Made by a program: the position numbers and the translations under genes
NCBI GenBank assembly: GCA_030684555.1
Contig: JAUXVN010000004.1
Location: forward strand, 1-64,000
DNA: 64,000 nucleotides
Direction of reading: 5' to 3'
Source: Ignavibacteria bacterium
GTDB taxonomy: Bacteria > Bacteroidota > Ignavibacteria > Ignavibacteriales > Ignavibacteriaceae
Part shown: one piece after another, positions 26,930 through 53,086 of the stretch
Layout of the letters: each line of letters starts with the position of its first letter
Numbering within the stretch: position 1 is the first letter of the stretch
The notes under the pieces: generated by a model
What the model was told of the DNA's origin: nothing
The model's input: the letters and a program-made list of their open reading frames with translations, nothing else
The model's database searches: none

Positions 26930-28306
26930 TTAATCTAAAAAACCTAATCGTTTTAATCCTTTTTGAATAAGAGGATCTTTCATTAAATTATTCCAAACAA
27001 ATCCGGTTCTGAAATTCTCAATCATTATAACAAACGGTCCTTGATCAATACCGATATAATCTATATTGAACCAATTGAGAGTTGGATTAAAAGCATCTAC
27101 AAATCCATATTTTCCCCACAAACCTTTATCACCATATTTTTCATACATCGATTTAAGGGTGGGTATAACTATTTCCGGAGCGAAAACAATAGAGCCGCCG
27201 GCAGCAGTCGGGGCAATAGTTCCGTCATCATTCTGAATAACTTTTTTTCCGCTGGTTCCCCGCGCGGTGTAATATTCAAATTTTTTGTCATCAAAGTTGA
27301 AAGAATTGCCGGGACCATCGCAAGCTGTTAAGCCCCAACAGAGTGAATCATAACCTTTCCACTTCAAAGGATTTTCAATTGCATATTTATGTTGAGTTAA
27401 AACAGCACGCCGTGAATTTTCGAAATAGTCAATTCCTTTTTCTTTAAGGTATGGGTCGGCTAATCCTCTAAAGTCGATGAACATATGTGAGTAATGATGC
27501 CCTAATAACGGCGGGAAAAGAGCATGAGCCAAACCCGGGTATGGTTCGCGCCATTCGTAGTTAGCATTCCAGGCGTAATATGCTTCATCAATCTTTTTAT
27601 AATCTAAAGAAGCTGCAAGTACGTACATGATTAAGGCTTCATTAAATCCAACCCAGCCGATTGGATTCAGTCCTGTTTCAGGTTCCCATGAAAGCGAAAT
27701 TGTATTTCCGTACTTTCCACCGGAGGGCATTGTAAGAAAATCCCATTCAACTCGTTGAGTAATTTTTTCACCAAGTTCACGAATCTCTTTTTCGATGTCA
27801 TCATTGCCGCTATAATATTGAATTGCGAAATGGATTCCGGCAAGCAAAAGTCCGGTATCAATTGAAGAAAGTTCACAATCCCAAAAACGTTTTCCGGTTT
27901 TCATATCAACAAAATGATAAAAGAAGCCTTTATTACCTGTAGCGGAATCACGATCACTTTGTTCAGCAGTCCAAAGAAATTTTAATAGATTTAGTGTAAG
28001 ATATTTAGCTTTCTCTCGAGAGATCCATTCACGTTCAGCACCAATTGCCCAAATTGGTATTGCAAAACCTGTTGCCGCCATACTTGCGGGTGATCCCGGT
28101 TGACTGCGGTCTCTTACTAATCCATTATCGGGATTGATTTCGTTAATGAAATATTGGAATGAATAGAATTGAAGAGTATCAAGAAAAATTTCATCTTCAT
28201 TTGAAAGATGATAATTAATTTTGCGATTAGTTTTATCATCAGCACCAAATAATATGATATTAAATAGTGTTAACACAAAACCGAATATTATTAGACTTTT
28301 CTTCAC
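26930..28306 (-). CDS. GH144-family glucanase-like protein (soluble/periplasmic copy)
   Basis: A 458-residue protein with a signal peptide (KSLIIFGFVLTLFNIILFG) and one catalytic domain of the glycoamylase-like (PF10091) family, now GH144, whose characterised members hydrolyse beta-1,2-glucan. Family landmarks: FLDTLQFYSFQYFINEINPD, GLVRDRSQPGSPAS, FYHFVDMKTGKRFWDCELSS, DTGLLLAG, GLTACDGP, APTAAGGSIVFAPE, IDQGPFVIMIEN. It lacks both the Fn3 domain and T9SS sorting domain of its paralogue at 40804, so it probably works in the periplasm on imported oligosaccharides. GTG start at 28306 with GGAG upstream. It follows the operon starting at 37627 after a 380-bp gap. Confidence 0.8.
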   Translation of the reverse strand: MKKSLIIFGFVLTLFNIILFGADDKTNRKINYHLSNEDEIFLDTLQFYSFQYFINEINPDNGLVRDRSQPGSPASMAATGFAIPIWAIGAEREWISREKAKYLTLNLLKFLWTAEQSDRDSATGNKGFFYHFVDMKTGKRFWDCELSSIDTGLLLAGIHFAIQYYSGNDDIEKEIRELGEKITQRVEWDFLTMPSGGKYGNTISLSWEPETGLNPIGWVGFNEALIMYVLAASLDYKKIDEAYYAWNANYEWREPYPGLAHALFPPLLGHHYSHMFIDFRGLADPYLKEKGIDYFENSRRAVLTQHKYAIENPLKWKGYDSLCWGLTACDGPGNSFNFDDKKFEYYTARGTSGKKVIQNDDGTIAPTAAGGSIVFAPEIVIPTLKSMYEKYGDKGLWGKYGFVDAFNPTLNWFNIDYIGIDQGPFVIMIENFRTGFVWNNLMKDPLIQKGLKRLGFLD

Positions 28307-28686
28307 AGTTACTCCGTTTTTTAAATGTTTTAATTATGAGTCAACTCTAAAAAGTTAATAAACGGTTACGCCATAGGCGCACAGGTAAAACCGTTAATAA
28401 AAAGGTTGATTTTTTTTTCATATTCCAACAGATGAAGAGGTTATGTGAATATTATTTGTCAAACACAGGAACTCATCCCCAACCCCTTCTCTTGCAAAGA
28501 GAAGGGGCTATTTAACTCTGTTATTAAAGTCCCTCTCTTTTTAAGAGAGGGATTTTCCCAAAGGGATGCCTTTGGCAAGGGTGAGTTTTCTTCTTGCAAT
28601 TGAATTTTCACACAGCTTCTAAATCTGTTGGTTAACCTAAACCCAATCTTTTTGGGTGAACTCATTTATAAGTTATTAAAATAAAA
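28307..28686. repeat. 380-bp gap with two strong hairpins
   Basis: CCCCTTCTCTT-GCA-AAGAGAAGGGG (28483-28507, 11-bp stem) and TCCCTCTCTT-TTT-AAGAGAGGGA (28530-28552). The first has counterparts in the CCTCTTCCCAAGAGGG word of the 3' cassettes. No gene is present; the hairpins may end the upstream transcript from the PorV/PorQ-like gene. Confidence 0.7.
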
Positions 28687-29697
28687 TTATTCAATTGAAA
28701 CTCCGACAGTAAATCGATGAGATTCGAGAAGGCGTCCATAATCACCCCAGGCATAATCAAACCTCACGATTGAATTTCCGGCAAACGGAACATTTACACC
28801 AATGCCAAGAACTAATCCCCCTTCGGAATCGGGCATTAAAAGATCGCGATATCCAACTCGAAGAGCAAAGTTTTTAAGAGCTTGAAATTCCGCACCGACA
28901 TTAACTTTTTCATTATTGTCGTTTGGATGCATTGCGTCAACTGCAACGGTTAGTTTGTAGTCATCAGAAAAAATGAACGGATAGGAAACCCCGACTCTAA
29001 AAACTGTTGGCAGCGGATACTCATCGGTTCTCAATTGAGCAGGGAGTAAATCATTATCACCATATTTATTCGGATCGAAATCGTAGTTGATAAAGAGATC
29101 ACGCCCCGAATAACCGGTTCGTGGACCAAAGTTTGAAACGCTTGCACCGATAGTAAATTCATCGTATTGGTAGGATACACCGAAGTTCATTGCAAATCCG
29201 GAGAGAGTGCTATGCCAGATACTTTCTTGAAAATAGCTAAGTTGAGTACCGACAGAAACCCTATCGGTCAGCATTAAACCATATCCTAATCCTAATGCAA
29301 AGTTGTTAACGGTATATCTTTCACCTGTACCGAGGGGTTGTTCAACAGTTCTAACGTCAATCTCTCCCGAGTTCAAAGAAGTCATTTGCAAAGAGAATGT
29401 CCCGATAGTACTAATCGGAAGGGCAACGATAGCATAATTATAAAGAATATCGGCAATCCATTTATTGTAAGTAAACTGAACATCAATTGAATTTAATCTA
29501 CCCAAACTTGCGGGATTATAGAAAATAGCAGAAGCTTCTCCCGATATTGCTGTGCCTGCATTTCCCATTGCAGAAACACGACTGCTTGGGTCAATTTTCA
29601 AAAACTGTCCAATGGTTGTTCCTGTTTTGCTTTGCGGCAGATTAATAATTGTTAATGCAAAGAAAAAAAGTAAGAATAATAATTGTTGTGATTTCAT
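28687..29697 (-). CDS. PorV/PorQ-family outer membrane protein
   Basis: A 336-residue outer-membrane beta-barrel protein of the PorV/PorQ type: signal peptide (MKSQQLLFLLFFFALTIINL), the typical start SSRVSAMGNAGTAISGEASA then IFYNPASLGRL, and alternating amphipathic strands ending RFTVGVSIE. PorV shuttles T9SS cargo from the translocon to the attachment complex; PorQ is a sortase-complex component. It is adjacent (12 bp) to a giant putative T9SS cargo and downstream of the TonB receptor, so it may serve as a dedicated chaperone or be a paralogue with another role. Confidence 0.8.
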   Translation of the reverse strand: MKSQQLLFLLFFFALTIINLPQSKTGTTIGQFLKIDPSSRVSAMGNAGTAISGEASAIFYNPASLGRLNSIDVQFTYNKWIADILYNYAIVALPISTIGTFSLQMTSLNSGEIDVRTVEQPLGTGERYTVNNFALGLGYGLMLTDRVSVGTQLSYFQESIWHSTLSGFAMNFGVSYQYDEFTIGASVSNFGPRTGYSGRDLFINYDFDPNKYGDNDLLPAQLRTDEYPLPTVFRVGVSYPFIFSDDYKLTVAVDAMHPNDNNEKVNVGAEFQALKNFALRVGYRDLLMPDSEGGLVLGIGVNVPFAGNSIVRFDYAWGDYGRLLESHRFTVGVSIE

Positions 29698-29709
29698 TTT
29701 ACACTCCTC

Positions 29710-32700
29710 TTACTTTATAATTGCAAATTTGCCGATATAAGGAGAAACATCCTTAGCATCAACGTGAAAGATATATAACCCGGGAGCAACTTCAAGATTA
29801 TCCTTTGTTCTTAAATCCCATGGAATTACTCCATCAGTAATATTACCGCTATGATATAGGGTTTGAACTAATTCCCCGGTAACCGTGTAGATTCTGATAG
29901 TTGCATTTTGTGGTAAACCTCGAAACTCAAGTTTGCGCTCTCCTCGTCCGGAAACAGCAAATCGTTGGGGTTCAAAACTTGCTGCACCTACATAAGGATT
30001 GGGAACTACATACGGTTTTGAATTGTAATCTGATTTAGTTTTATCTGCATCACTCTTGTGTCCGATTGTTTTAAAATTAAACACATCGCCGGTAGCAAAC
30101 GGGATTAATAGATTTAGTTTAAAGACATCATTTTTTGTAGGAGGAATAATGACACCTCTTAAATATTGCCCCGTAGTGTCCATTCTCAAATTCCATGTTG
30201 AGAGGTTTGTATTAGGAGCGGCATTGGTGTAGGTTAAAACCTCTATGTAATCTCCATGCTGATTAATTGTACCGGAATTATCAAAGTCAGCAAATCTGAA
30301 TTTTAATTTTTTATCTCCATTCGGTGATTTTGCAATAACTTTGAAGTTTACAGGTTTTGATCTTAAAGCAGCACCGACTCCGCCAACAGATGTATCTTGA
30401 ATTTCATCACTGAAAATAATTTCTAGATTATCAGGATAACCGTTACGTCTAAAATTCATCGGACGGGAAGGAGCATATCTTGAAGCAAATGCAATTGTTG
30501 TAGCTCCCGAAGAAACAAATCCTGTAGTGGTTGTATCAACAAAAACCGAATCGGAAGTTTTAACAATCGGAAGAATTCCTTTCCCTACCGGACCAACTCC
30601 TAATCCCGAAAAATCACTACCTGTTGTAAAAAGAGTATCACCGCCTGTTTCATCAATTAGAGTGTAAGAAATTGCTTTTACTGAATCCGTTGGATTATAA
30701 AATTCTATTTTAAAGATATGATCATTAGGAACAAGATTTGAGTTTTTTACAACGATATCAATAGTGCCGGTACCGCCTCCCTCTGAATGAACAATATTTT
30801 CTACTGATGCAGGTTGATATCCAACAGTGTGAGGGTTCGGAGTAACTTCAACAACATTTTTCGGAAGTATGGTTCCTCCTCTCAAAGTTTGTGTTACTGC
30901 AATTGCATTTTCTGATGGATAAAGTTCAAGTGAATCGGAACCTCTATCATAAGCAGTAATTGCATAATAGTATTGTTGTCCGTTTACTACAGTTGTATCA
31001 ACAAAAGCATGAGTGATTCCATTATCAGAACCAAGGAAATAACCAACTCCTTCAACTTGAACCTGAGAAAATCCAACAATATCATTTATTAAATCGAATT
31101 GAGCAATTGGTTTACCATTGCCGATAGGACCTGAACCGGTACCGGTTGTTATTACTTGTGGATCGAGAAAAGTAGGATCAGTACTTCTGTAGATTCTATA
31201 ACCTTCAAAATCATTTGTAGTTGTTACAGGATCGTATGCTCTTTCGGCAGCATCATCCCAGGTTAACGTAACAAATCTATCGCCGGAAAACGCATGAAGA
31301 GTTGGCATTGGCGGCGGAACTGCGAATTGATAATTAGCCTTATAAATTTTTTGAACAACTTTTGTATTGTTTTTAAGTTCTCGAAGATCATGTCCGAAAA
31401 CAAGTGCAAGACTGAATCTTTCAGTTTTATCTGCTTTCAGTTTAAAGGGACCTGAAGCAAATAAAAATCCGATATTAATATTTGTTCTTGTTATCTCTTG
31501 TTCAAAGGAAGAATCAGGTGTAGTAAAAATGTTATATAGACGTTTGGGCCAATTTCTGCCGTCATCAAAAAAGATGATGTTATCTGTTGAGCCGCCGCCT
31601 GAAGGATCATTAATAACATTATACTTAAATCCTGTTAAACCGATTTGATCAGATTCATCAATATCTGTTTTATCGAAGTTGGGTTCACCGTTGGTCGGCA
31701 TTCCGTCAAGTTCACCTGTATCATTTGTACCAAAAACACCGTCTACTCCGGTATCATGGAATTCAGCTATCCAATCCAAATCTTCATCACCCGTCCACCA
31801 ATAACTTCTTTGATATGCAGGCATATTTTCGAGTTTACCGTAGTAGGTTTCAAATTTGCTAAGATTATAATTTGCAAACACATAATTTTTTATAGCATCT
31901 TGAGATGTTAACAGAACCCCGGGACCGCCATCTCTTTTCTCGTTAGTGATTCCATCTTCATCATCATCAACAAAATTAAGTGAGTTGCCCGGAGTTTCTA
32001 AATATGAATATCCGAGGTAACCGGTTTTGCCTCTAACACCGTTCCCGTAAAAATCCCAGGTGTAAACAATATTTAATCCGGGTTCTCTGCTGAAGTAAGC
32101 ATTATCGTCATCCGATTCAGGATATGGATCAACGCCTTTAGTTGAGCCGCCGACACCGGCATCCATATATAAGCCGAATAAAATGTTATCGTTGTAATCA
32201 GTAGTACTTTCGTTGGTTATATCATAGTGGAAAAAAATCACATTTCCTGCTTGCGGGTTATTCCATTGAAAACCTCTTTGTTCAACTCTAAGCCCCAAAC
32301 CTCTTCTTGTTCTATCACGCGAGTCAGGAAAATAATTCCAAGCATCGTAGTAATTATCATCGAATACAACAAAACTTTCCTGCATTTCCAATTTAGGAGC
32401 TTTACCAAAATAACCGTTCCAACTTCCTCCCCAACCCGGATCATCGAAATCATATAATTTATCGACCCATCTATCTGGCCATGTGCGGGGATCGTTACTC
32501 ATTGCAACTGATCGTGCTTTATTAATATCTACATTATCTTGAAAATAACCGGGACGTGGTTCAAACCTCATAGTTTTATTTGTAATCGGGCTGGTTCCTT
32601 GTCTTTCTCTAAATCCAGTTTCAAAGATATACGATTCGCTTCCGGATTCTTGTATTATTTTTGAAAGAACAAATGGAGTAATACCATCGCTGTAGTTTTC

Positions 32701-32961
32701 ACCTGAACCTTTAGGAACTTCGACAGAATGGAATGTTGTTAGATCAACTTTAATTGGATCAGGGGGATAATCACCGACCATTCCATAATTGAAGAATCTT
32801 GTTCTTATGCGGTTAAAATCGTGATGCCCCATTCTTTCGGCATCAATCTTTCCTCTCAGTGAATCGGGTACAGGAAGCGGAAACCCTTGAGGAGTAATTT
32901 CCATGTTGAACATCAAGCAGAAGAGAAGAATTGTTAATTTTACTAATTGATTTTTTTTCAT
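29710..32961 (-). CDS. Giant secreted surface protein coupled to the TonB receptor
   Basis: A 1083-residue protein with a signal peptide (LVKLTILLFCLMFNMEITPQG). It contains a large N-terminal region rich in Trp, Tyr and Asp with acidic Ca-binding-like stretches (VDDDEDGITNEKRDGG), an Fn3 module (FVTLTWDDAAERAYDPVTTT; YYYAITAYDRGSDS), more beta modules, and a FlgD/sorting-type C-terminus (KPYVVPNPYVGAASFEP; GLYIFHVDAKDVSPYIGKFA). The C-terminal pattern suggests T9SS export. Starts two bases after the TonB receptor stop with AGGAG inside it, so the two are coupled, like SusC/SusD-type partners. A glycan-capturing partner role is inferred. Confidence 0.75.
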   Translation of the reverse strand: MKKNQLVKLTILLFCLMFNMEITPQGFPLPVPDSLRGKIDAERMGHHDFNRIRTRFFNYGMVGDYPPDPIKVDLTTFHSVEVPKGSGENYSDGITPFVLSKIIQESGSESYIFETGFRERQGTSPITNKTMRFEPRPGYFQDNVDINKARSVAMSNDPRTWPDRWVDKLYDFDDPGWGGSWNGYFGKAPKLEMQESFVVFDDNYYDAWNYFPDSRDRTRRGLGLRVEQRGFQWNNPQAGNVIFFHYDITNESTTDYNDNILFGLYMDAGVGGSTKGVDPYPESDDDNAYFSREPGLNIVYTWDFYGNGVRGKTGYLGYSYLETPGNSLNFVDDDEDGITNEKRDGGPGVLLTSQDAIKNYVFANYNLSKFETYYGKLENMPAYQRSYWWTGDEDLDWIAEFHDTGVDGVFGTNDTGELDGMPTNGEPNFDKTDIDESDQIGLTGFKYNVINDPSGGGSTDNIIFFDDGRNWPKRLYNIFTTPDSSFEQEITRTNINIGFLFASGPFKLKADKTERFSLALVFGHDLRELKNNTKVVQKIYKANYQFAVPPPMPTLHAFSGDRFVTLTWDDAAERAYDPVTTTNDFEGYRIYRSTDPTFLDPQVITTGTGSGPIGNGKPIAQFDLINDIVGFSQVQVEGVGYFLGSDNGITHAFVDTTVVNGQQYYYAITAYDRGSDSLELYPSENAIAVTQTLRGGTILPKNVVEVTPNPHTVGYQPASVENIVHSEGGGTGTIDIVVKNSNLVPNDHIFKIEFYNPTDSVKAISYTLIDETGGDTLFTTGSDFSGLGVGPVGKGILPIVKTSDSVFVDTTTTGFVSSGATTIAFASRYAPSRPMNFRRNGYPDNLEIIFSDEIQDTSVGGVGAALRSKPVNFKVIAKSPNGDKKLKFRFADFDNSGTINQHGDYIEVLTYTNAAPNTNLSTWNLRMDTTGQYLRGVIIPPTKNDVFKLNLLIPFATGDVFNFKTIGHKSDADKTKSDYNSKPYVVPNPYVGAASFEPQRFAVSGRGERKLEFRGLPQNATIRIYTVTGELVQTLYHSGNITDGVIPWDLRTKDNLEVAPGLYIFHVDAKDVSPYIGKFAIIK

Positions 32962-32963
32962 GA

Positions 32964-37805: not shown

Positions 37806-38615
37806 CTACTCCTTTACTCCACCACTCATAATTCCGGAGATGTAATATTTTTGCAAAAAGAGGAAAACGATTAGAACAGGAATAATCGTAATAACCGAAC
37901 CAGCCATCATAAGTTCAGGATCTTTTGAGTGTTCAAGCATTAAGTTTGCAAGTGCTACCGGAAGTGTATATAAGGAATTATCTGTCAAAACTATTAGAGG
38001 CCACATAAAATCGTTCCAGGTTCCCATAAATGTAAAAAGTGCTAACGTGATTAATATAGGCATACACAACGGTAAAATAATTCGATAGTAAATTTGGAAA
38101 TCATTTGCTCCGTCAATTTTTGCCGATTCAATTAAACTATCCGGTATCGAAATAGCATATTGCCGAATTAAAAATATTCCGAAGATATTTGCCATTCCGG
38201 GAATTATGATTGCATAATATGAGTTTATCAATCCCATTGATTTCAACATAAGAAAAAGAGGAAGCATTGTTACCTGAGCCGGAATTATCATCGAACTAAG
38301 AAGCAGATTAAATATTTTATCTTTCATTTTAAAACGGAACTTTGCAAATGCATAACCTGCCATCGAATTAAACAGCAGGGAAATCACCGTAACAGTTATT
38401 GATAAAAATAGGCTGTTCAGAAAATTGCTTGAAACATTTAAACGCGTAAACAAATTTCTATATTGCATTAATGTAAATGCATCCGGGAAAAATATTGGTG
38501 GATATACATTCGCATGACCATCGGCCATAAACGAAGCTGAAAGCATCCAAATAAACGGGCTGAGTGTAATTATACTTGTTACGATTAAAAAAATATGGAG
38601 AATTGTTTTTTTCAT
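37806..38615 (-). CDS. Sugar ABC transporter permease (MalG-like)
   Basis: A 269-residue inner-membrane protein with six hydrophobic segments and the conserved cytoplasmic loop SAKIDGANDFQIYYRIILPL (EAA-like motif contacting the ATPase). It pairs with the permease upstream and the binding protein to form a carbohydrate uptake ABC transporter (CUT1). It is the last gene of the leftward operon. No ATPase gene follows, so a shared ATPase (MsmK-like) encoded elsewhere must energise it. Confidence 0.88.
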   Translation of the reverse strand: MKKTILHIFLIVTSIITLSPFIWMLSASFMADGHANVYPPIFFPDAFTLMQYRNLFTRLNVSSNFLNSLFLSITVTVISLLFNSMAGYAFAKFRFKMKDKIFNLLLSSMIIPAQVTMLPLFLMLKSMGLINSYYAIIIPGMANIFGIFLIRQYAISIPDSLIESAKIDGANDFQIYYRIILPLCMPILITLALFTFMGTWNDFMWPLIVLTDNSLYTLPVALANLMLEHSKDPELMMAGSVITIIPVLIVFLFLQKYYISGIMSGGVKE

Positions 38616-44777: not shown

Positions 44778-47156
44778 TTATTCACCAAGCTGAACATCAA
44801 CTTCAACAATTTCATCGCTCAAAACAAAAACAACATTGCCGCTTTGTTCTACTCCGTTTACTTTTATCGATTTAACATTTTTTCCGGTGTGATTATCATT
44901 ATTTACTTTGATATTATAAACAGTATTGCGGAATAACCTTCTCACAGAATATGAATCCCACTCTTTCGGAATGCAAGGATCGATAATTAAACCCGCTTCT
45001 GAGGCTCTAATTCCCAATATCCAATCGACAACAACTTTTACAAACCAGGATGCCGAACCGGTGTACCAGGTCCAACCACCCATTCCGTAATTAGGTGAAT
45101 CAGTGCCGTCAATATTGCCCGGAGTAACAAATGGTTCCGCAACATATTCATCCGGATTCATACCGTTTAAAATTGGGTTAAGTCGTTTGCAAACTTCATA
45201 AGCATTTTCATTATCTTTTAATAATGCATAAGCCCAAACCGACCATGTAGCTGCATGTGTATAAACTCCTCCGTTTTCTCTTCTTCCGGGGGAATATCGT
45301 GAAAGGTAACCAATATATTTATCCGGTACAGAGTAAGCGGGATGAAGCAACAATGTTCCATTCTTTTTTAAAAGATTTTTTGATACCGCATTCATTGCCT
45401 CTTTTTGTTTTTGGGAATCGGCGATACCACTTATTACTGACCAGATTTGTGGATTGAGATAAATTTTCCCTTCACTATTTTCGCAGCTTCCTATTTTTTG
45501 ACCATTATCTTTTGTTGCACGGAAAAACCATTCGCCATCCCAGGCATATTTATCAAAGCTATTCTTCAGATCTGATGCTTTTTTTCCGTAGTAGTTTGCC
45601 AAATCAGCTTCATTTAACTTTAATAATATTTTTTCAAAACGGATTAAAATCAAATATAAAAACTCTGTAAGCCAAATTGATTCACCTTTCATATCGAGAC
45701 CTACCGCACTTAGTCCATCGTTCCAATCACCAGCGCCGATAAGTGCTAAACCCCGTTCGCTTATTCTGGTAAGAACTTTATCAACAGCCCTTTTGATATG
45801 ATCAAATATGCTTCCTGTTTGATTGCTGTTGTAAAAAGGTTCTACTTTATTGAGTAGTTCATAATTAGCTGTTTCGTCAATGTAATTGAAAACTAAAAAG
45901 GGAAGCCAGAGCAAATCATCGGTCATATTTGTTGACAAACCTGTTTCAGTAATTGGATGCCACCAATGCAAAACTTGTCCGTCTTCAAATTGATGGCGTG
46001 CATGTAATCGAATCTGCTTTTCTGTCAGTGCTGGATCTATAGCAAGATAAATCAGACTATCTTGTAACTGATCTCTAAAACCGAAAGCACCACTTTGTTG
46101 GTAATAAGCTGTTCTTCCCCATAAACGTCCTGCGATTGCCTGGTAACGAAACCATTTATTTACTGAAAGATTCATTGCTTTATCGGGTGTGTTTATTTCC
46201 AGGGTACCAAGAATAGTTTCCCAATTGCTTTTAACTTTACTAAGTTCATCTTTTATTTGTTCAGATGTTAAATAGTTTGCCAACGTTGTTCTGATTTCTT
46301 CTTTGGTTTTTTCAAGTCCGAGATAAAATGCGGTCTCTTTTTTTTCATTTAGATTAAGTTCAACATTAACCATCAATGATGCGATTGAATCATTCCACTT
46401 TCCTGTTTTGCCGGTTAGTTTAGATTCTTTTACCGCAATAGGATTTTGTAAACTGCCGTAATTGCCAATGAACGATTCTTTATCTCCTTCATATCCGGAA
46501 ACTTTTTTGTTTGAAGCAAAGTAGCCGAAATATTCATACTCAATATTCCAATGTCCTCTATCGCTTAATGGAATTTCCCATAATCTTTTAGTCGCTGTTA
46601 TTGCGTTGATGTCTTCTTCAAACCAGGTTTCAAGAAAAGTTTTGTGAAATTCACGATGATGATCGGCAGAAGAACCGAGTACCCATTCAAAATATGTAAA
46701 GATTGATAAATCAGCAGGTTCACCCGACTTATTTTCAATTTCTAAATTCCATATTTCGAGACTATGTTTATTTGGTACAAACATAGTGAGCGTAATCTCT
46801 ATTCCTTTATAGCTTGATTTGAAGACGGTATATCCAAATCCAAAGCGGCACTCGTAACTGTCAAGTTCAGTTTTAACCGGCATCCATGCGGGATTCCAAA
46901 CTTCTCCGGTTTTATTATTTTTAATGTAGATGTATTTACCCCAATTATCTTGAATCAAATCCTGATGCCATCTGGTAATTCGATTAAATTCCGAATGCGT
47001 ATCCCAACTAAAACCGCCTCCGGTTTGAGAAACAACCAAACCGTAAGTTCCGTTTGTTAAAATATTAACCCAGGGTTTAGGTGTACGTGGTGTTTTGATT
47101 ATATACTCATTACCATCGTTTGAGAAATAGCCATATTTGGTTTCGAAGTGCGTCAT
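44778..47156 (-). CDS. GH94-family phosphorylase
   Basis: A 792-residue cytoplasmic enzyme (no signal peptide). GH94 landmarks: YGYFSNDGNEYIIKTPRTPK PWVN; GGGFSWDTHSEFNRITRWHQ; YYQQSGAFGFRDQLQDSLIY; HARHQFEDGQVLHWWHPITE; MTDDLLWLPF; GAGDWNDGLSAVG with the catalytic acid D in GDWND (about residue 475); GGVYTHAATW; GGWTWYTGSA. GH94 enzymes cleave beta-glucosides with phosphate, yielding glucose 1-phosphate. The QSG(A)FGFRDQLQD and HWWHP motifs resemble the GH94 part of cyclic beta-1,2-glucan synthases, favouring a beta-1,2-linked substrate; cellobiose-type activity is the alternative. Confidence 0.85.
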   Translation of the reverse strand: MTHFETKYGYFSNDGNEYIIKTPRTPKPWVNILTNGTYGLVVSQTGGGFSWDTHSEFNRITRWHQDLIQDNWGKYIYIKNNKTGEVWNPAWMPVKTELDSYECRFGFGYTVFKSSYKGIEITLTMFVPNKHSLEIWNLEIENKSGEPADLSIFTYFEWVLGSSADHHREFHKTFLETWFEEDINAITATKRLWEIPLSDRGHWNIEYEYFGYFASNKKVSGYEGDKESFIGNYGSLQNPIAVKESKLTGKTGKWNDSIASLMVNVELNLNEKKETAFYLGLEKTKEEIRTTLANYLTSEQIKDELSKVKSNWETILGTLEINTPDKAMNLSVNKWFRYQAIAGRLWGRTAYYQQSGAFGFRDQLQDSLIYLAIDPALTEKQIRLHARHQFEDGQVLHWWHPITETGLSTNMTDDLLWLPFLVFNYIDETANYELLNKVEPFYNSNQTGSIFDHIKRAVDKVLTRISERGLALIGAGDWNDGLSAVGLDMKGESIWLTEFLYLILIRFEKILLKLNEADLANYYGKKASDLKNSFDKYAWDGEWFFRATKDNGQKIGSCENSEGKIYLNPQIWSVISGIADSQKQKEAMNAVSKNLLKKNGTLLLHPAYSVPDKYIGYLSRYSPGRRENGGVYTHAATWSVWAYALLKDNENAYEVCKRLNPILNGMNPDEYVAEPFVTPGNIDGTDSPNYGMGGWTWYTGSASWFVKVVVDWILGIRASEAGLIIDPCIPKEWDSYSVRRLFRNTVYNIKVNNDNHTGKNVKSIKVNGVEQSGNVVFVLSDEIVEVDVQLGE

Positions 47157-47191: not shown

Positions 47192-48184
47192 TTAACACGA
47201 ACCGCCAACAATAAGTTCGGTTAATATTTTTACATTTTGAATTGGATCATTGTTTCCATTCATTCTGTTAATTAAAATTTGTGCTGCGTTTGTTCCTAAT
47301 TCATAAATCGGTACATGTACAGAGGTTAAGCGCGGGTTTAGAAATTGAGAAACAAAAATGTCATCAAATCCTGCAACGGCAAAATCAACAGGGATTTTTA
47401 ATTTGAGATGACGCGCTGCAACATAACATCCGATAGCCATCATATCGTTTGATGCAAAAATTACTTCGGGCGGATTTTCCAGCTTCATTAAAGTTTCACA
47501 CGCAGCTTGTCCGCCGTTTATTGTAAAATCACCGGTGACAATCCATGACTTATTAATTTCGATTCCATTGTTCTTTAGTGCTTGCCTATAACCGAGTTCA
47601 CGCTGAATAGAATCATTATTTTTTTGAGGTCCGGATATATGAGCAATTTTTTTGTAACCCTTTTCTGCCAGATAATCGACGACAGAATAAGCTCCGTTAA
47701 AATTATCAATACTTATGGAATCCCATTTTTGCAGTTCAGATTTTCCGCTGATAACAACAAGTGGAATTTTACTGCTTGCTAAAGTTTTCTTTACATCATC
47801 CTCAACAAGCGGGGTCATTAAAATCAATCCCCCCACAATTCCTTTACTCATGTAATCAACAATTGCTTCAACCATTGATCTGTTGCTATGCGAACTTGTA
47901 ACCATTGTATAATAACCGTGGTTATAGCAAATTTCATCTACACCACGAATTATTTCCATAAAAAATTCGCCAAAAATATCGGGCATAACAAGTCCGATTA
48001 TATTCGATTTTTTTGTAACAAAACTTCTTGCCAACAGATTTGGGTTATAGTTTAACTCATTGGCTATTGATTTAATTAATTTTTTTGTAGAAGATTTAAC
48101 TTTTTTATCATCATTCAACGCTCGTGAGACCGTAGCAATTGATACTTTTGCCAGCTTCGCTATTTCTTTTATTGTTGTTGCCAT
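47192..48184 (-). CDS. LacI-family transcriptional regulator
   Basis: A 330-residue regulator. Residues 1-50: TIKEIAKLAKVSIATVSRAL NDDKKVKSSTKKLI is the LacI helix-turn-helix with hinge; the rest is a periplasmic-binding-protein-like effector domain (IIGLVMPDIFGEFFMEIIRG, GFDDIFVSQFLNPRLTSVHV P). It is the first gene of the leftward GH operon and probably represses it until an oligosaccharide or related ligand binds. Three operator palindromes near its own and two other promoters fit it as local regulator. Confidence 0.9.
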   Translation of the reverse strand: MATTIKEIAKLAKVSIATVSRALNDDKKVKSSTKKLIKSIANELNYNPNLLARSFVTKKSNIIGLVMPDIFGEFFMEIIRGVDEICYNHGYYTMVTSSHSNRSMVEAIVDYMSKGIVGGLILMTPLVEDDVKKTLASSKIPLVVISGKSELQKWDSISIDNFNGAYSVVDYLAEKGYKKIAHISGPQKNNDSIQRELGYRQALKNNGIEINKSWIVTGDFTINGGQAACETLMKLENPPEVIFASNDMMAIGCYVAARHLKLKIPVDFAVAGFDDIFVSQFLNPRLTSVHVPIYELGTNAAQILINRMNGNNDPIQNVKILTELIVGGSC

Positions 48185-48202
48185 TGATTTTTTTTATATT
48201 TG

Positions 48203-48354: not shown

Positions 48355-51300
48355 GTGAAAAAACTTTTTCCCCGATCCTTTTTTATTTTTCTACTGTTTT
48401 GTGCATCTCTAACTAATTTATTAGCACAAGCTGATATATATCAAAATAATTTTGATTCCATTGACGGATGGAAAATTGTCGCTGCTGATGAAGTCGATAT
48501 TAAAATTTCAAAAATTGAGTCGGAGTATGGAACAAGTTTAAAGTTAGATTATCACTTTATAGCAGGTTCCGGTTATGGCGGAATTCAAAAAGTTATTCCA
48601 CTCGATCTCCCCGATAATTATGAGTTTTCATTCAAGCTGAAAGGAGATTCTCCCAATAACGACTTTGAGTTTAAGTTGTTGGATGAAGATGGAACTTCAG
48701 TTTGGTGGATGAATAGAAGAAATTATTCATTTCCAAAAGATTGGCAAACATTAAAAATTAAAAAAAGACAAATCGAAAAAGCCTGGGGACCTTCAAACGA
48801 GTATTCACCAAAGAAAATTCACAAAATCGAATTTATGATTGCCTCGGTTAACGGAGGTAAGGGAACTTTATATATAGATGATTTCAAATTGGTTAAAAGA
48901 GAAGTTCCTTCTAATCTGAATATTCAACCGGATTATTCCGCAAATTCCCAAAAAGATTTTAACCATAACATCAATTTGGCTTTTGATTCTAACAAAAACA
49001 CTTTTTGGCATTCTGATCCTAACTCAAATAAAGCTGAAATAATAATCGATTTCAAAAAAGAAAAAGAGCTTGGCGGATTAACTCTTCGTTGGGATGAGAA
49101 TAATTATCCTCTTCAATCAGAATATTTCATTTCTGATGATAAAATTAACTGGACAAAAATTTATTCTGTAAAAAACGGAAAAGGGAATCTTTCTTTTATT
49201 TACCTCCCCGAAACAGAAGCACGATATTTAAAAATCGAATTAAATAAATCAAACAAAAATGGTTTTGCATTAGCTGAATTGACTTTTGAGCCTCTTTCCT
49301 TCGGGAGTAATTTTAATAGATTTTTTGAGACTGTTTCTTCTCATTATCCGCGTGGTTACTATCCTAAATATTTCACTCCGGAAAAATCTTATTTTACAAT
49401 TACCGGGGTTAATAATGATACAAAGGAAGCACTCATTAATGAAGAAGGTCAAATAGAAGTTGATAAAAGTAGTTTTTCGATTGAGCCCTTTATTCATAAT
49501 GGTAAAGAGCTCATTACGTGGGAAAATAGTATAAATATTCAGTCACTCGAAGATGAATATTTACCCATTCCGATTGTGAAGAGAAGTGATGATAATCTCG
49601 AACTTGAAATAAAGATGTTTGCGGACGGTGAAGCCGGGAAATCAGTTTTAAATTTGCAATATACTTTAAAAAACAAATCGTCAGAAAATCAGAATGGGAA
49701 TATCTATTTTGCGATTCGTCCGTTCCAGGTAAATCCATCATATCAATTTTTAAATACATCCGGAGGTGTTGCCAAAGTTGAATCTATTTTTTTTGAAAAT
49801 GATAATGCAATAATCAACAACAATAAAACTGTTTATCCATTGTTAAAGCCCGACAATAAAGGGGCATCAGTTTTTGACAGAGGAGAAATAATTAATTTCA
49901 TTTCGAAAAATACGCTTCCGGGTGAAATCTCTGCGTATGATAATTTGGGATTAGCTTCGGCAGCTTATACGTATAACTATAATCTTCAATCAGGAGAAGA
50001 AATAAAATACTATTTCCTTATCCCATTTCATGAAAAGGAGATTAAAGTTGTCAATCCGTTCAATAAAAAAGAAGCAGACGTATTCATGGAAAACAAACTT
50101 GCTTCAATAAAAAGCTTCTGGGAAGAAAAGCTTAACTCATTCGAAATAAAACTTCCGGGGGAATATAGAAAATGGACAAATACACTTCGTTCAACATTGG
50201 CTTATATTTTAATTAATCGTGATAATGCCGGAATTCAACCGGGTTCACGTTCTTATGAACGCTCATGGATTCGAGATGGTTCGCTCACTTCATCGGCATT
50301 GCTAAAACTTGGAATTACAGAAGAAGTAAAAGATTTTATCGAATGGTATTCTTCATATCAGTATAAATCCGGAAAGGTTCCTTGTGTTGTTGATAGACGG
50401 GGTCCTGATCCGGTTCCGGAAAATGATAGTCACGGACAATTGATTTACTTAATTCATCAATACTTTCTTTTTACAAATGATACAATGTTTCTAAGATCTA
50501 AATTTCAAAACGTAAAAGCGGCTGTTGATTACATTGCAGAGTTGATTTCACAAAGGTCAACTGATGATTATAAACTTACCGATTCATTAAAAAACTTTTA
50601 CGGAATTTTACCCGAATCGATAAGTCATGAAGGTTACTCCGAAAAGCCGATGCATTCATACTGGGATAATTTTTTTGCAATTAAAGGCTTAAAAGATGCA
50701 GTTGATATTGCATCAATTTTAGGGGAAAAAGAATCTGAATTAAAGTTCATTTCGATAAGAGATAAATTTAAAACCGATCTTTATAATTCACTTTCCGGAG
50801 CGATTAAAACTAAAGAGATTAATTACATTCCCGGCTGCGTTGAACTTGGTGATTTTGATGCAACATCAACAGCGATTGCCCTTTATCCATGCAATGAAAA
50901 GTTGAATTTGCCTCAACCATATCTTAAAAATACCTTTAACAAATATTATGATTATTTTGTTAAAAGACGCGATGACACAACTTTTAATTGGATTAATTAT
51001 ACTCCTTATGAATTAAGGACAGTCGGTGCCTTCATTCAATTAGATCAGCCGGAAAGAGGGCATGCTCTTTTAAACTATTTCTTTAAAGATCAGCGCCCAC
51101 AGGGTTGGAATCATTGGGCAGAAGTTGTTTGGAAAGATCCTAAGCTGCCACGTTTTATCGGAGATATGCCGCACACCTGGGTTGGTTCTGATTTTATATC
51201 TTCGCTCCGTTCGTTTTTTGTTTATGAAGATGAACAGCGTAAAGCATTAATTATCGGAGCTGGAATTATTCCCGAATGGATTGAGCATCCGCTTGGAATA

Positions 51301-51546
51301 ACCATCAAGAATATGAAAACCTATTACGGAAACATTTCATTCACAATGAACAAATCCTCGGCGAATACAATATCAATTCTACTTGATGGCTCAATTCAAA
51401 TGCCCAAAGGTGGAATGGTTATTAAGAATATTTTTAAAAATAAGAGTATTATTTCTGTAAGAATTAATAATGTCGTAGTTAAAAATTACAATAATTTTGA
51501 AATTGCAATTAATGAATTACCTGCGACGGTTGAAATCAACTATTGA
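48355..51546 (+). CDS. Secreted discoidin/(alpha/alpha)-barrel protein, candidate new glycosidase family
   Basis: A 1063-residue exported protein with signal peptide (FPRSFFIFLLFCASLTNLLA). N-terminal jelly-roll (CIA30/CBM-like; DIYQNNFDSIDGWKIVAADE to GTLYIDDFKLVKRE, about 24-182), a discoidin F5/8-type domain (about 185-300; AFDSNKNTFWHSDPNSNKAE), a beta-rich region, then an (alpha/alpha)-barrel-type catalytic-looking domain with SRSYERSWIRDGSLTSSALL, HSYWDNFFAIKGLKDA and PHTWVGSDFISSL at about 640-1000. RSWIRDG and trailing Glu/Asp resemble GH15/GH63/GH94-type folds, but I cannot place it in a named family. No sorting domain. GTG start at 48355 with AAAGGTAG upstream. Divergent from lacI and behind the operator, so likely part of the same pathway. 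Confidence 0.75.
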   Translation: MKKLFPRSFFIFLLFCASLTNLLAQADIYQNNFDSIDGWKIVAADEVDIKISKIESEYGTSLKLDYHFIAGSGYGGIQKVIPLDLPDNYEFSFKLKGDSPNNDFEFKLLDEDGTSVWWMNRRNYSFPKDWQTLKIKKRQIEKAWGPSNEYSPKKIHKIEFMIASVNGGKGTLYIDDFKLVKREVPSNLNIQPDYSANSQKDFNHNINLAFDSNKNTFWHSDPNSNKAEIIIDFKKEKELGGLTLRWDENNYPLQSEYFISDDKINWTKIYSVKNGKGNLSFIYLPETEARYLKIELNKSNKNGFALAELTFEPLSFGSNFNRFFETVSSHYPRGYYPKYFTPEKSYFTITGVNNDTKEALINEEGQIEVDKSSFSIEPFIHNGKELITWENSINIQSLEDEYLPIPIVKRSDDNLELEIKMFADGEAGKSVLNLQYTLKNKSSENQNGNIYFAIRPFQVNPSYQFLNTSGGVAKVESIFFENDNAIINNNKTVYPLLKPDNKGASVFDRGEIINFISKNTLPGEISAYDNLGLASAAYTYNYNLQSGEEIKYYFLIPFHEKEIKVVNPFNKKEADVFMENKLASIKSFWEEKLNSFEIKLPGEYRKWTNTLRSTLAYILINRDNAGIQPGSRSYERSWIRDGSLTSSALLKLGITEEVKDFIEWYSSYQYKSGKVPCVVDRRGPDPVPENDSHGQLIYLIHQYFLFTNDTMFLRSKFQNVKAAVDYIAELISQRSTDDYKLTDSLKNFYGILPESISHEGYSEKPMHSYWDNFFAIKGLKDAVDIASILGEKESELKFISIRDKFKTDLYNSLSGAIKTKEINYIPGCVELGDFDATSTAIALYPCNEKLNLPQPYLKNTFNKYYDYFVKRRDDTTFNWINYTPYELRTVGAFIQLDQPERGHALLNYFFKDQRPQGWNHWAEVVWKDPKLPRFIGDMPHTWVGSDFISSLRSFFVYEDEQRKALIIGAGIIPEWIEHPLGITIKNMKTYYGNISFTMNKSSANTISILLDGSIQMPKGGMVIKNIFKNKSIISVRINNVVVKNYNNFEIAINELPATVEINY

Positions 51547-51581
51547 TTGTACCAAGGATTGATAGCATAATCTTTAAAACA

Positions 51582-51614
51582 ATTAAGCCGGACAATATTC
51601 TTATCCGGCTTAAT
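51582..51614. terminator. Hairpin between convergent genes
   Basis: ATTAAGCCGGA / TCCGGCTTAAT, an 11-bp stem with 11-base loop, 36 bp after the stop at 51546 and before the convergent gene ending at 51675. Suits a bidirectional terminator, although the T-run is weak. Confidence 0.75.
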
Positions 51615-51674
51615 ATTAGAATGCATTGCTAAAAAACATTTAGAGAGATTGACTCCCTTAAATCAAATCAATGC

Positions 51675-53003
51675 CTACTTCAATAAGGTCATTAATTTAG
51701 CAACGGTTTGTTTTGCTCCGTTATTATCAACAGAATTCAATTGATATACATAAGTACCGCTTGATAAACTTGAAGCATCAAAAACTACTTGATGTGTTCC
51801 TTGAGCAAAATCTTTATTAACAACAGTGGCAACTTCACGTCCGAGCATATCAAATACAACTATTTGCACTTGAGAAGCTGCTGGTAAACCAAAACTAATT
51901 GTTGTTGAAGGATTGAAAGGATTAGGATAGTTTTGTGATAAACTGAAATTAACAGGAGCTTGAACATCAACTTGAACAGTTTGTGAAAATTCAGATTTGC
52001 CATCAAAGTCGATTTGTCTTAATCTATAATAATAAAGACCTGAGATTTCGTTAATATCAATAAAACTATATTCAGTTTTTTCTGAAGTGGTTCCTCTTCC
52101 ATCAACAAAACTTAAGGTTGCGAAAGAATTGTTATCCATACTTCTTTGAACTTCAAAACCGCTATTATTTGTTTCTGATGCGGTTGACCAACGCAATTCA
52201 ACACCTTTGGCTACAGGAACAGCTAAGAATGAAGTAAGTTCGACAGGAACATCTGCTGCTTGTGGTTGTAATATTCTATAAGTTCCGCCCCATTCACTTC
52301 CCCACCATTGTTTGTAGAAGTTTCCGTTTGGTCCCCATGCTGGTGCACCAAGGCTATAATTATCAGGATCAAAAATAACAATCATTAAAGTAACAGGAGC
52401 TAAAGGATCTGTGTAACCAAGTTGATCCAGGTGGATTACAGTTTCTGAACTGTAACCATTATCATTATTGGTAGAATCATAAATTGTAGTCCCCGGCTTT
52501 GCATATCCAACACCTTCAGTAACACCGGCAGGGGCATTGGTTTCAAATACAAACGCAGGAACATCTGCAACCACACCAACGTAATTTTTTATTTCATATT
52601 CACTTGCACCGGAAAAATTTTTAATCTTCATAAACATACCGTCACCTTCCCAATCGAATCGGCAAACTTGCTTATCGTCTGAATCTAAAGCAATATAGAG
52701 ATTAAAACCGGAACGTAAAAATTTTACTTTGGTAGTTGAAGCCTCTGTATAAGGTGGTTTAACTTCGACACCGTCAGTTGGTGTATTCCCGTTACCTGTT
52801 GGTACACCATCTTTTTTGAACATTAAATATGGAACATCAACAGCCCATGAGGCTTCGTTAAGTTGGCCGTCAAGAGTTATTGAAGTTGTTGTATTGTAAA
52901 CGGGTAGTGTGGCTGGATCAACAACAGCTTGTGAATGAATTTGAGTGGTGGAAACAATTATAAGCAGAACAAATAAAGCGAGTTTGTAATGTAACTTGAG
53001 CAT
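51675..53003 (-). CDS. T9SS-exported protein with one CBM9-like domain and PVELTSF module
   Basis: A 442-residue protein with signal peptide (KLALFVLLIIVSTTQIHS). A CBM9/DOMON-like sugar-binding domain at about 28-250 (SITLDGQLNEASWAVDVPYL, KVKFLRSGFNLYIALDSDDK), the VPVELTSFLA module at about 255 and a sorting domain (LSQNYPNPFNPSTTISFG). Strong ribosome-binding site AGGAGG before ATG 53003. A LacI-type operator at 53065-53086 lies directly upstream, joining it to the regulon. It probably binds the same surface glycan as the CBM9-like protein at 35717. Confidence 0.85.
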   Translation of the reverse strand: MLKLHYKLALFVLLIIVSTTQIHSQAVVDPATLPVYNTTTSITLDGQLNEASWAVDVPYLMFKKDGVPTGNGNTPTDGVEVKPPYTEASTTKVKFLRSGFNLYIALDSDDKQVCRFDWEGDGMFMKIKNFSGASEYEIKNYVGVVADVPAFVFETNAPAGVTEGVGYAKPGTTIYDSTNNDNGYSSETVIHLDQLGYTDPLAPVTLMIVIFDPDNYSLGAPAWGPNGNFYKQWWGSEWGGTYRILQPQAADVPVELTSFLAVPVAKGVELRWSTASETNNSGFEVQRSMDNNSFATLSFVDGRGTTSEKTEYSFIDINEISGLYYYRLRQIDFDGKSEFSQTVQVDVQAPVNFSLSQNYPNPFNPSTTISFGLPAASQVQIVVFDMLGREVATVVNKDFAQGTHQVVFDASSLSSGTYVYQLNSVDNNGAKQTVAKLMTLLK

Positions 53004-53064
53004 AGAACCTCCTGAAATAATGTTATTATATTGTATTTAGAGTCTTCGCTACGGATTAACATAT

Positions 53065-53086
53065 AAAATGTAAACGTTTACATTTT
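53065..53086 (-). promoter_or_regulatory. LacI-type operator 3
   Basis: A perfect 22-bp palindrome whose core is TGTAAACGTTTACA (53069-53082), with four A before and four T after it. It lies 62 bp upstream of ATG 53003. It matches operator 1 exactly over the core. The rest of 53087-53512 is gene-free and shows nothing else I can support. Confidence 0.88.

What the first reader, a model, noticed from the sequence alone, without database searches (positions are those of the whole stretch)
26930..53086. A beta-1,2-glucan utilisation locus combining TonB, T9SS and ABC import
Exported GH144, a second GH144 without anchor, GH94 of the cyclic-glucan-synthase-like type, GH2, CUT1 binding protein and permeases, TonB receptor, CBM9-like surface proteins and LacI are together. 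GH144 enzymes act on beta-1,2-glucan, and Listeria has a similar phosphorylase/ABC set. I recall work on a related Ignavibacterium cluster, but this one has GH2 in place of the GH35 enzyme studied there.
Basis: partly seen in the sequence, partly recalled or inferred. Interest (0 to 1): 0.75.

Follow-up and report, generated by a model that had tools for sequence, protein, structure and literature searches.

The report
Beta-1,2-glucan locus with unassigned enzyme
A bacterium from the Ignavibacteriales carries a gene set that looks made for cutting up, importing and digesting a rare bacterial sugar polymer; most of it resembles a described cluster, but it holds one swapped enzyme and one conserved, likely enzymatic protein that fits no family tested here.

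Summary
[quoted passage not shown] A palindrome, TGTAAACGTTTACA, lies at three intergenic places of the locus; its 16-base form occurs, with up to one mismatch, nowhere else in the genome. The plan matches the published Ignavibacterium album cluster (PMC8861115). Two things go beyond the passages of that paper I read. (1) The GH2 stands where some relatives carry the I. album-type GH35 glucosyltransferase: 20 of 59 genomes have this GH2, 6 the GH35, none both. (2) An unlisted 1063-residue exported protein (48355-51546, 'SIXH') has a catalytic-looking half that reaches no Pfam or NCBIfam cut-off; 13 of 13 SIXH-bearing genomes in a sample of 148 also carry PF10091. Invariant glutamates lie in the two loops that hold the GH15 catalytic pair (my helix count). 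The locus is a new variant of a known kind; SIXH, a candidate new hydrolase family, is its novel part. No activity was tested.

The parts
26930..28306 (-). GH144-s: XcSGL-type beta-1,2-glucanase homologue, hydrophobic N-terminus, no T9SS tail (periplasmic, inferred)
   Evidence: PF10091 235.8 bits; best PDB 8xul XCC2207 353 bits; acid E223, base-candidate D150 and Y346 in 82 of 82 sequences, clan phenylalanine replaced by L268 in this sequence only
28687..29697 (-). PorV/PorQ-family outer-membrane barrel protein
   Evidence: NF033709 193.8 bits, cut-off 90; PorV and PorP_SprF Pfam matches
29710..32961 (-). P1083: 1083-aa protein with hydrophobic N-terminus and a T9SS-like C-terminal end
   Evidence: no Pfam family; weak PorZ C-terminal match, 25.9 bits against a cut-off of 260; next to the TonB gene on 23 of 23 contigs read that hold both; similar proteins elsewhere in the genome
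32964..35639 (-). TonB-dependent receptor
   Evidence: PF00593, PF07715, PF13620
35717..37639 (-). T9SS-sorted surface protein with a CBM9-like domain
   Evidence: PF06452 and PF18962
37709..37722 (.). LacI-type operator (inferred), perfect palindrome, upstream of the surface/TonB unit
   Evidence: same place in G001
37806..38615 (-). CUT1 ABC permease (MalG-like)
   Evidence: PF00528
38619..39509 (-). CUT1 ABC permease (MalF-like)
   Evidence: PF00528
39517..40800 (-). solute-binding lipoprotein of the sophoro-oligosaccharide type (inferred)
   Evidence: best PDB 3uor 364 bits, Lin1841 5ysb 238 bits, the next 110 bits
40804..42684 (-). GH144-L: exported, T9SS-sorted GH144
   Evidence: PF10091 plus Por_Secre_tail; 4gl3 528, 5z06 493, 5gzk 458 bits; acid E301, base E230, F354, Y416 in 69 of 69 sequences
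42693..44774 (-). GH2 of a distinct subgroup without signal peptide, in the slot of the GH35 beta-1,2-glucosyltransferase
   Evidence: PF02836/02837/00703; E408 (NEPG) and E466 (VTEFG) invariant in 23 sequences; structure matches
44778..47156 (-). GH94 phosphorylase of the cyclic-glucan-synthase domain type
   Evidence: PF17167/PF06165; best PDB 8rf9; D480 aligns with the GDWND aspartate, D2528 of RrCGS
47192..48184 (-). LacI-family regulator
   Evidence: PF00356, PF13377
48205..48218 (.). LacI-type operator (inferred; one mismatch) between lacI and SIXH
   Evidence: the same 14-mer at this place in G001 and G018
48355..51546 (+). SIXH: exported protein with an N-terminal sandwich, F5/8 type C domain, supersandwich and (alpha/alpha)6 barrel; unassigned candidate glycoside hydrolase
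   Evidence: Pfam over cut-off only for F5/8C domains; AlphaFold model mean pLDDT 92.4; fold matches; invariant residues in 73 of 73 rows
51675..53003 (-). T9SS-sorted surface protein
   Evidence: PF18962 41.7 bits
53069..53082 (.). LacI-type operator (inferred), perfect palindrome, upstream of the T9SS-sorted surface protein
   Evidence: same place in G001

Best explanation
A LacI-controlled regulon for taking up and breaking down beta-1,2-glucan. Inferred sequence of events: (1) T9SS places GH144-L and CBM9-like proteins on the cell surface, where GH144-L cuts beta-1,2-glucan. (2) The TonB receptor with P1083 and the PorV-family barrel brings fragments into the periplasm; the genome has no SusD match. 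(3) GH144-s shortens them, and SIXH acts in the periplasm on ends or linkages that the GH144 pair leaves; its fold, its W-x-R-D motif and two invariant glutamates suggest an exo-acting inverting glucohydrolase, perhaps on the alpha-1,6 joint of alpha-1,6-cyclised beta-1,2-glucans. (4) The lipoprotein and two permeases, with the genome's MalK-type ATPase, import oligosaccharides. (5) In the cytoplasm the GH94 phosphorolyses them to glucose 1-phosphate and sophorose, and the GH2 takes over the sophorose step that a GH35 glucosyltransferase performs in other members of the order. Shown: gene content, family and residue conservation, conserved palindromes, GH2/GH35 exclusivity, SIXH-GH144 linkage. 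Inferred: every activity, the binding of LacI to the palindromes, the cell locations, and the order of steps.
For: Families. GH144 subtypes and residues. GH94 nearest CGS (492.7 bits in all, best domain 441, against 424 for cellobiose phosphorylase; over one stretch of the catalytic domain 38.2% against 33.9% identity). SBP nearest 3uor and Lin1841. Three palindromes in 64 kb where 0.02 are expected; none elsewhere in 4.34 Mb at one mismatch or fewer of the 16-mer; perfect copies on 13 of 39 contigs read, own included. Exclusivity: GH2 20 of 59, GH35 6 of 59, both 0, hypergeometric P 0.0015 on 33 genomes; of 31 GH144-L genes read, 17 have GH2 and 5 have GH35 directly before them; the GH35 of G007 is IaSGT-like, 1092 bits to 7vkw. 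SIXH: 23 of its 24 genomes are PF10091-positive among 59; 13 of 13 among 148; a GH144 gene in 66 of 80 loci, directly upstream on the same strand in 54 of 72 that have an upstream ORF. Bacteroidales locus L104 pairs SIXH with an SOGP-architecture GH94, a GH35 with GLMA_2nd, MFS and SusD. SusD absent, one MalK.
Against: No assay exists for any protein of this window. GH94: the margin over cellobiose phosphorylase is small. GH2: the nearest structures are beta-mannosidases at about 20-25% identity, so beta-glucoside specificity is not indicated by structure. Nine of 31 GH144-L genes have neither GH2 nor GH35 directly before them, and 7 of 33 genomes have neither gene. GH144-s: one of the three clan-defining residues is changed in this sequence (F to L). 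Palindrome: absent in perfect form from 26 of 39 contigs read; at up to two mismatches the reversed control pattern has more matches than the real one (8 against 6 per strand). SIXH: anomeric specificity cannot be read from the fold; 38 of 51 PF10091-positive genomes in the phylum sample lack it, so it is not required for beta-1,2-glucan use. Genomes are related, so P values overstate independence. A 380-bp gap without a palindrome separates GH144-s from the unit before it.
Confidence: 0.82

Rival explanations
1. The locus serves a different beta-1,2-linked or mixed glycan (a substituted or heteropolymeric one), with the GH144 pair as only part of the set; the GH2 then removes galactosyl, mannosyl or glucuronosyl groups.
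For: A GH35 in one Bacteroides GH144 locus is a beta-1,2-galactosidase that does not hydrolyse beta-1,2-gluco-oligosaccharides (PMC11739564); the GH2 is structurally nearest to beta-mannosidases.
Against: The SBP resembles Lin1841, the GH94 resembles the CGS domain, and the GH2 slot is filled by an IaSGT-type beta-1,2-glucosyltransferase in other genomes.
Confidence: 0.12
2. SIXH is an exo-beta-1,2-glucosidase or sophorose-releasing enzyme, not an alpha-glucosidase; it finishes GH144 products in the periplasm. (This concerns one part and can hold together with the best explanation.)
For: Its tight linkage to GH144 suggests the main product as substrate; Foldseek's first three matches are GH94 cellobiose phosphorylases, which act on beta-glucosides.
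Against: Enzymes that can already handle beta-1,2 bonds share loci with it: GH3-like genes in 19 of 80 loci, 10 of them within 5 kb, and an SOGP-architecture phosphorylase in L104. VIA-align's top rows include GH15 and GH65 alpha-glucosidases.
Confidence: 0.4
3. SIXH is a polysaccharide-binding or structural protein that has lost catalysis.
For: It carries an F5/8C domain and a further N-terminal sandwich; no activity is known.
Against: R636, W638, R640, D641, E689, D691, E759, D771, E830, E886, E923 and D937 are invariant in 73 of 73 rows, E759 and E923 in the loops where GH15 keeps its catalytic pair.
Confidence: 0.07

Closest known systems
Ignavibacterium album IALB_1177-1187 cluster (Kobayashi 2022, PMC8861115; abstract and passages read)
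   Same: Two GH144 proteins, a GH94 described as a homologue of the CGS C-terminal domain, an SBP homologous to the Listeria Sopn-binding protein, a TonB-dependent transporter, in a related bacterium
   Different: GH2 in place of the GH35 IALB_1185. The paper's introduction mentions a GH3 in the cluster, its discussion says no beta-glucosidase homologue is there. SIXH and operators are not mentioned in the passages I read; figure S1 with the gene map was not available to me
Listeria innocua Lin1839-1841 set (SOGP, GH3 beta-glucosidase, Sopn-binding protein; described in passages of PMC8861115 and PMC12369401)
   Same: Phosphorylase plus ABC import of sophoro-oligosaccharides; homologous binding protein
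   Different: The GH94 here shows no SOGP_N, SOGP_2nd or SOGP_4th domain; no GH3 in the locus; outer-membrane and T9SS parts added
Bacteroidales SIXH locus L104
   Same: GH144-L, GH144-s and SIXH together
   Different: SusD protein, MFS importer, SOGP-architecture phosphorylase, 810-aa GH35; no LacI or CUT1 gene recognised in the stretch held
GH15/GH65 inverting alpha-glucosidases (the 5z3 series, KfIG; 7fe3, F. johnsoniae GH65)
   Same: For SIXH: (alpha/alpha)6 barrel (7fe3 also over the supersandwich), W-x-R-D motif shared with a GH15-matching protein, glutamates in the alpha5-6 and alpha11-12 loops by my helix count
   Different: 10-12% identity, no Pfam cut-off reached by the window protein, extra N-terminal sandwich and F5/8C domains
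IaSGT, GH35 beta-1,2-glucosyltransferase (7vkw)
   Same: Its type occupies the slot of the GH2 in sister loci; cytosolic (PMC8861115)
   Different: Different family; no match in this genome

Membership tests
GH144 (40804-42684) | PF10091 match and the acid, base-candidate, phenylalanine and tyrosine of the SGL clan | tested here: met
   (235.2 bits, cut-off 27), all four in 69 of 69 sequences
GH144, XcSGL type (26930-28306) | PF10091 match; nearest characterised relative XcSGL; general acid E, acidic base candidate, clan tyrosine | tested here: met
SGL clan (26930-28306) | Phenylalanine at the XcSGL F286 position (one of three residues named as clan-defining in PMC12102758) | tested here: not met
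   L268, codon TTA; F in the 81 other sequences. I therefore call this copy GH144-like with one defining residue changed, and leave its activity open
GH94, cyclic-glucan-synthase domain type | PF17167 and PF06165 domains; catalytic aspartate of GDWND; nearest to CGS | tested here: met
   margin over cellobiose phosphorylase small
SOGP of the Listeria/Lachnoclostridium architecture | SOGP_N, SOGP_2nd, SOGP_4th Pfam domains, about 1100 aa | tested here: not met
   792 aa, none of these domains; control L104 1114-aa protein has them
GH94 phosphorylase | Phosphorolysis of beta-1,2-gluco-oligosaccharides | not testable with these tools
   needs an assay
GH2 (42693-44774) | GH2 Pfam domains, acid/base and nucleophile glutamates, GH2 fold | tested here: met
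   (model pLDDT 76.6)
IaSGT-type GH35 | PF01301 plus GLMA_2nd, high similarity to 7vkw | tested here: not met
   no match at E 1e-30 in the window's genome; present in G005, G007, G022, G029, G032, G036
CUT1 ABC importer for sophoro-oligosaccharides | SBP related to Lin1841, two permeases, MalK-type ATPase | tested here: met
   ATPase outside the locus on C152; ligand not testable
Bacteroidetes SusCD-type polysaccharide utilisation locus | SusD lipoprotein | tested here: not met
   PF07980 0 matches in the genome; control genome Bacteroides ihuae rings
GH15 (SIXH) | PF00723 over its cut-off | tested here: not met
   17.1 bits, cut-off 22; PF17389 20.4, cut-off 24.5; of two remote relatives scanned, one passes GDE_C (23.4 against 21)
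GH15-like catalytic arrangement (SIXH) | Catalytic glutamates in the alpha5-6 and alpha11-12 loops (PMC12446779) | tested here: inconclusive
   invariant E759 and E923 lie in these loops by my helix count on the model, leaving out two four-residue helices; no superposition was available
Any CAZy family (SIXH) | Assignment in CAZy | not testable with these tools
   no CAZy library here

The most novel reading that the evidence does not exclude
SIXH founds an undescribed glycoside hydrolase family dedicated to beta-1,2-glucan loci across phyla: a periplasmic, exo-acting, inverting glucohydrolase with E759 as acid and E923 as base that opens what the GH144 pair cannot, most boldly the single alpha-1,6 joint of alpha-1,6-cyclised beta-1,2-glucans such as those of Xanthomonas, Ralstonia and Cereibacter; and the GH2 is a second, independently evolved beta-1,2-glucosyltransferase or sophorose hydrolase that replaced the GH35 in the same operon slot.
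Probability: 0.3. Interest if true: 0.75.

Novelty: new variant of a known kind. Interest (0 to 1): 0.58.

Why it matters
Beta-1,2-glucans take part in symbiosis and pathogenesis (abstract of PMC11842490), and enzymes for them have largely been found by exploring such gene clusters (PMC12102758, introduction passage). This locus adds two testable targets. One is a GH2 that stands in the slot of a glucosyltransferase: some GH2 beta-glucosidases are known (PMC12369401 passage), but none described as acting on beta-1,2-glucan turned up in the listings and passages of my searches. If SIXH cuts alpha-1,6 joints, it would show how bacteria consume alpha-1,6-cyclised glucans. The locus also suggests outer-membrane uptake without SusD.

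Tried and rejected
Rejected: that the GH94 is simply a cellobiose phosphorylase (nearest is the CGS domain, but only narrowly). Rejected: that GH144-s belongs to GH192-194; its best match XCC2207 is filed as GH144 in PMC12102758. Rejected: that the F-to-L change marks a subfamily; it is in 1 of 82 sequences, and all 25 relatives aligned, the same-genus one included, have F; it may be a real change or an assembly error. Not adopted: that SIXH is a member of GH15 or another six-hairpin Pfam family; the window protein reaches no cut-off. VIA-align lists members of GH15, GH65, GH78, GH116, GH95, GH94, GH63 and GH125 within about five Z units, so it does not single out a family. I did not identify I. 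album itself among the genomes searched, so no one-to-one comparison with IALB_1177-1187 was made.

The structure of SIXH could not be superposed on a template here. The box held no CAZy or Pfam library for scripts.

Papers: PMC8861115 abstract and passages; PMC12102758 outline with abstract, sections 5, 6 and 8 whole, section 12 part 1 of 2, and passages; PMC11739564 passages; PMC12369401 passages; PMC11842490 passages; PMC12446779 passages; all others listings only.

Rows dropped: 34 of 59 genomes pass E 1e-10; I counted the 24 with at least 239 bits and dropped 10 with short or weak matches. Alignment A2 holds the window and 72 of 80 loci: 7 were left out by a length filter (1030-1115 aa) and L132 (cut at a contig end) by me. 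A1 holds the window and 18 relatives. GH2, GH144-s and GH144-L sets were filtered by length and hold some genes twice, because the same contig is present under a G handle and an accession. One search lists sites on 13 contigs only, those with a perfect copy; two of its sites lie inside open frames as called (CBM9 gene of G018, lacI of G039).
Full report
OBSERVATION. Pfam finds two PF10091 (GH144-type) proteins, GH94, GH2, a sugar-binding protein with two permeases, a TonB receptor, a CBM9-like T9SS protein, a second T9SS protein and LacI between 26930 and 53003. The genome has no other PF10091 gene. Beyond the list lie a PorV/PorQ-family barrel, a 1083-aa protein without Pfam family (P1083), and a 1063-aa protein at 48355-51546 that I call SIXH.

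GENOME. The window lies on contig C105 of a 4.34 Mb assembly, 99.97% complete. Relatives placed in the same family have contigs of the same length and gene as named records (G007:C68, 50841 bases, and JABWCL010000032.1, Ignavibacteriaceae; G005:C50, 9809 bases, and JACAFB010000069.1, Ignavibacteriaceae), so the window is from the Ignavibacteriales (inferred).

ENZYMES. GH144-L (40804-42684) matches 4gl3, 5z06, 5gzk and 5gzh at 528 to 458 bits. It aligns with BDI_3064 (5z06), a GH144 enzyme that releases sophorose from the non-reducing end, only from residue 185 of that chain on, so that enzyme's first region is missing; whether GH144-L is endo or exo is open. GH144-s (26930-28306) is nearest to XcSGL (353 bits, next 217), a GH144 enzyme active on beta-1,2-glucan and solved with a heptasaccharide (PMC12102758). 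Across 82 GH144-s sequences the general acid, the acidic base candidate and the clan tyrosine are invariant; the clan phenylalanine is F in 81 and L in the window alone (codon TTA). Across 69 GH144-L sequences all four positions are invariant.

[quoted passage not shown] Over a stretch of the catalytic domain from about residue 301 it shares 38.2% identity (108 of 283) with RrCGS and 33.9% (97 of 286) with cellobiose phosphorylase. D480 aligns with the GDWND aspartate that PMC11842490 names as catalytic D2528 of RrCGS. It lacks the SOGP Pfam domains, which a Bacteroidales control protein shows. A GH94 described in the same words, IALB_1177, is in the I. album cluster (PMC8861115).

IMPORT. The binding protein is nearest to 3uor (364 bits; a sugar-binding protein, from X. 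citri by recall) and to Lin1841 (238 bits); the next match has 110 bits. No ATPase is in the locus; one MalK-type gene, 67% identical to a cluster-linked one, lies on C152, and in some relatives such a gene sits in or beside the locus. PF07980 (SusD) has no match in the genome. TonB and P1083 are adjacent on 23 of 23 contigs read that hold both, and proteins similar to P1083 lie on C45, C75, C72, C99 and C41 of the same genome, which suggests a general SusD-free uptake module.

REGULATION. TGTAAACGTTTACA occurs in the window, with at most one mismatch, three times (37709, 48205, 53069); shuffles give 0.02. In the whole genome the 16-base form with at most one mismatch is found only at these three places. 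At two mismatches there are three further places, and the reversed control pattern, counted up to two mismatches, has 8 matches per strand against 6, so two-mismatch sites mean nothing. The three sites lie upstream of the CBM9-TonB unit, between lacI and SIXH, and upstream of the second T9SS protein; G001 has all three in the same places. A perfect copy is on 13 of 39 contigs read, own included; 26 have none. That LacI binds it, and that SIXH is in the regulon, is inferred.

GH2 AGAINST GH35. Of 31 GH144-L genes read, 17 have this GH2 directly before them, 5 a GH35, 4 GH94, 2 GH144-s, 1 SIXH and 2 an unmatched frame (the GH35 of G032 is split over two contig ends). The four full-length GH35s carry PF01301 and GLMA_2nd, and that of G007 matches IaSGT (7vkw) at 1092 bits. 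In 59 genomes the GH2 (E 1e-60) occurs in 20, own included, and the GH35 (E 1e-30) in 6, none with both. The chance of no overlap among the 33 genomes with PF10091 or this GH35 is 0.0015, without correction for relatedness; 7 of those 33 have neither. In G010 and G035 the GH2 lies at the far end of the locus, in G011 on another contig than its GH144-s. IaSGT lacks a signal peptide (PMC8861115), and so, by its N-terminus, does the GH2. The GH2 model (pLDDT 76.6 from 10 sequences) is nearest to beta-mannosidases at about 20-25% identity, so specificity is open. The genome has five GH3 matches, none in the locus, so sophorose could also be finished elsewhere.

SIXH. In the window protein only F5/8C domains pass a Pfam cut-off; six-hairpin models score below theirs, and NCBIfam gives only weak oligosaccharide-amylase and trehalase matches. 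The model from 73 sequences has mean pLDDT 92.4. Foldseek puts cellobiose phosphorylases first, with dextran dextrinase fourth. VIA-align puts 5z3c (Z 27.8, 313 aligned, 2.8 A, 12%), of the series that PMC12446779 names as GH15 isomaltose glucohydrolase, and GH65 alpha-1,2-glucosidase 7fe3 (Z 27.7, 552 aligned, 4.5 A, 12%) level at the top, with GH78 and others close. A profile comparison aligns its W-x-RDG motif with a GH15-matching protein from beside a sister locus (probability 78.7; PF00723 29.0 bits for that protein). Invariant E759 and E923 (73 of 73) fall in the loops between helices 5-6 and 11-12 of the modelled barrel by my count (two four-residue helices left out), the loops that hold the acid and base of GH15 (PMC12446779).

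LINKAGE. In 59 relatives SIXH is in 24 genomes, 23 of them among the 32 with PF10091 (Fisher P 3.7e-8, relatedness not removed); the exception G036 has SIXH beside the GH35 on one contig. In 148 genomes drawn evenly from the phylum SIXH is in 13 and PF10091 in 51; the 13 are among the 51, each with both on one contig. Against an essential role, 38 of the 51 lack SIXH. Of 80 loci from named genomes (the best 80 of 587, so not a random sample), 66 have a GH144 gene in the stretch held, and 54 of 72 with an upstream ORF have it directly upstream on the same strand; 11 have neither GH144 nor GH94, five of these on stretches shorter than 7 kb. By record titles these loci span Ignavibacteria, Bacteroidota, Calditrichota, KSB1, Planctomycetes, Gemmatimonadetes and Proteobacteria. 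In Methylocaldum and two Competibacteraceae loci (L152, L158, L165) a GH94 lies next to or near SIXH; the two I scanned (L152, L158) have two supersandwich matches and no glycosyltransferase match; L162 and L164 have no GH94 or GH144 in the stretch held. GH3-like genes are in 19 of 80 loci, within 5 kb of SIXH in 10.

CONCLUSION. The locus is most likely a beta-1,2-glucan utilisation regulon of the I. album kind. The GH2 swap makes it a variant, and SIXH is its unexplained and most interesting member. The alpha-1,6 hypothesis rests on three inferences: GH15-like fold and motifs, coexistence in part of the loci with enzymes that can already cut beta-1,2 bonds, and the existence of alpha-1,6-cyclised beta-1,2-glucans in nature (PMC11842490). 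None of these is a test.

Noticed in passing
26930-28306, residue 268 (codon TTA): The clan-defining phenylalanine of GH144-type enzymes is leucine in this copy only (1 of 82 sequences); a real change or an assembly error.
   Followed up: partly
28687-35639 and contigs C45, C75, C72, C99, C41 of the same genome: TonB-P1083-PorV may be a general outer-membrane uptake module in a genome without SusD; one protein similar to P1083 (C45:14435-17533) lies about 3 kb from a GH3 gene.
   Followed up: partly
L035:10989-13220 (and matches in L137, L143, L156): A second GH15-like protein (PF00723 29.0 bits, cut-off 22) sits in or beside some of these loci.
   Followed up: no
L071 (G023:C42): A relative carries a 2909-aa cyclic-glucan-synthase-like protein (PF10091 and GH94 matches); SIXH and a GH144 pair were not found in it.
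   Followed up: no
L152:13232-17077, L158:13137-16616, L165:7010-10531: Gammaproteobacterial SIXH neighbours: 1159-1281-aa GH94 proteins; the two scanned (L152, L158) have two supersandwich matches and no glycosyltransferase match.
   Followed up: partly
6664-18914: Five long open frames on the + strand whose matches to the locus protein 51675-53003 cover about 40% of it (42-48% identity), probably a run of T9SS-sorted proteins.
   Followed up: no
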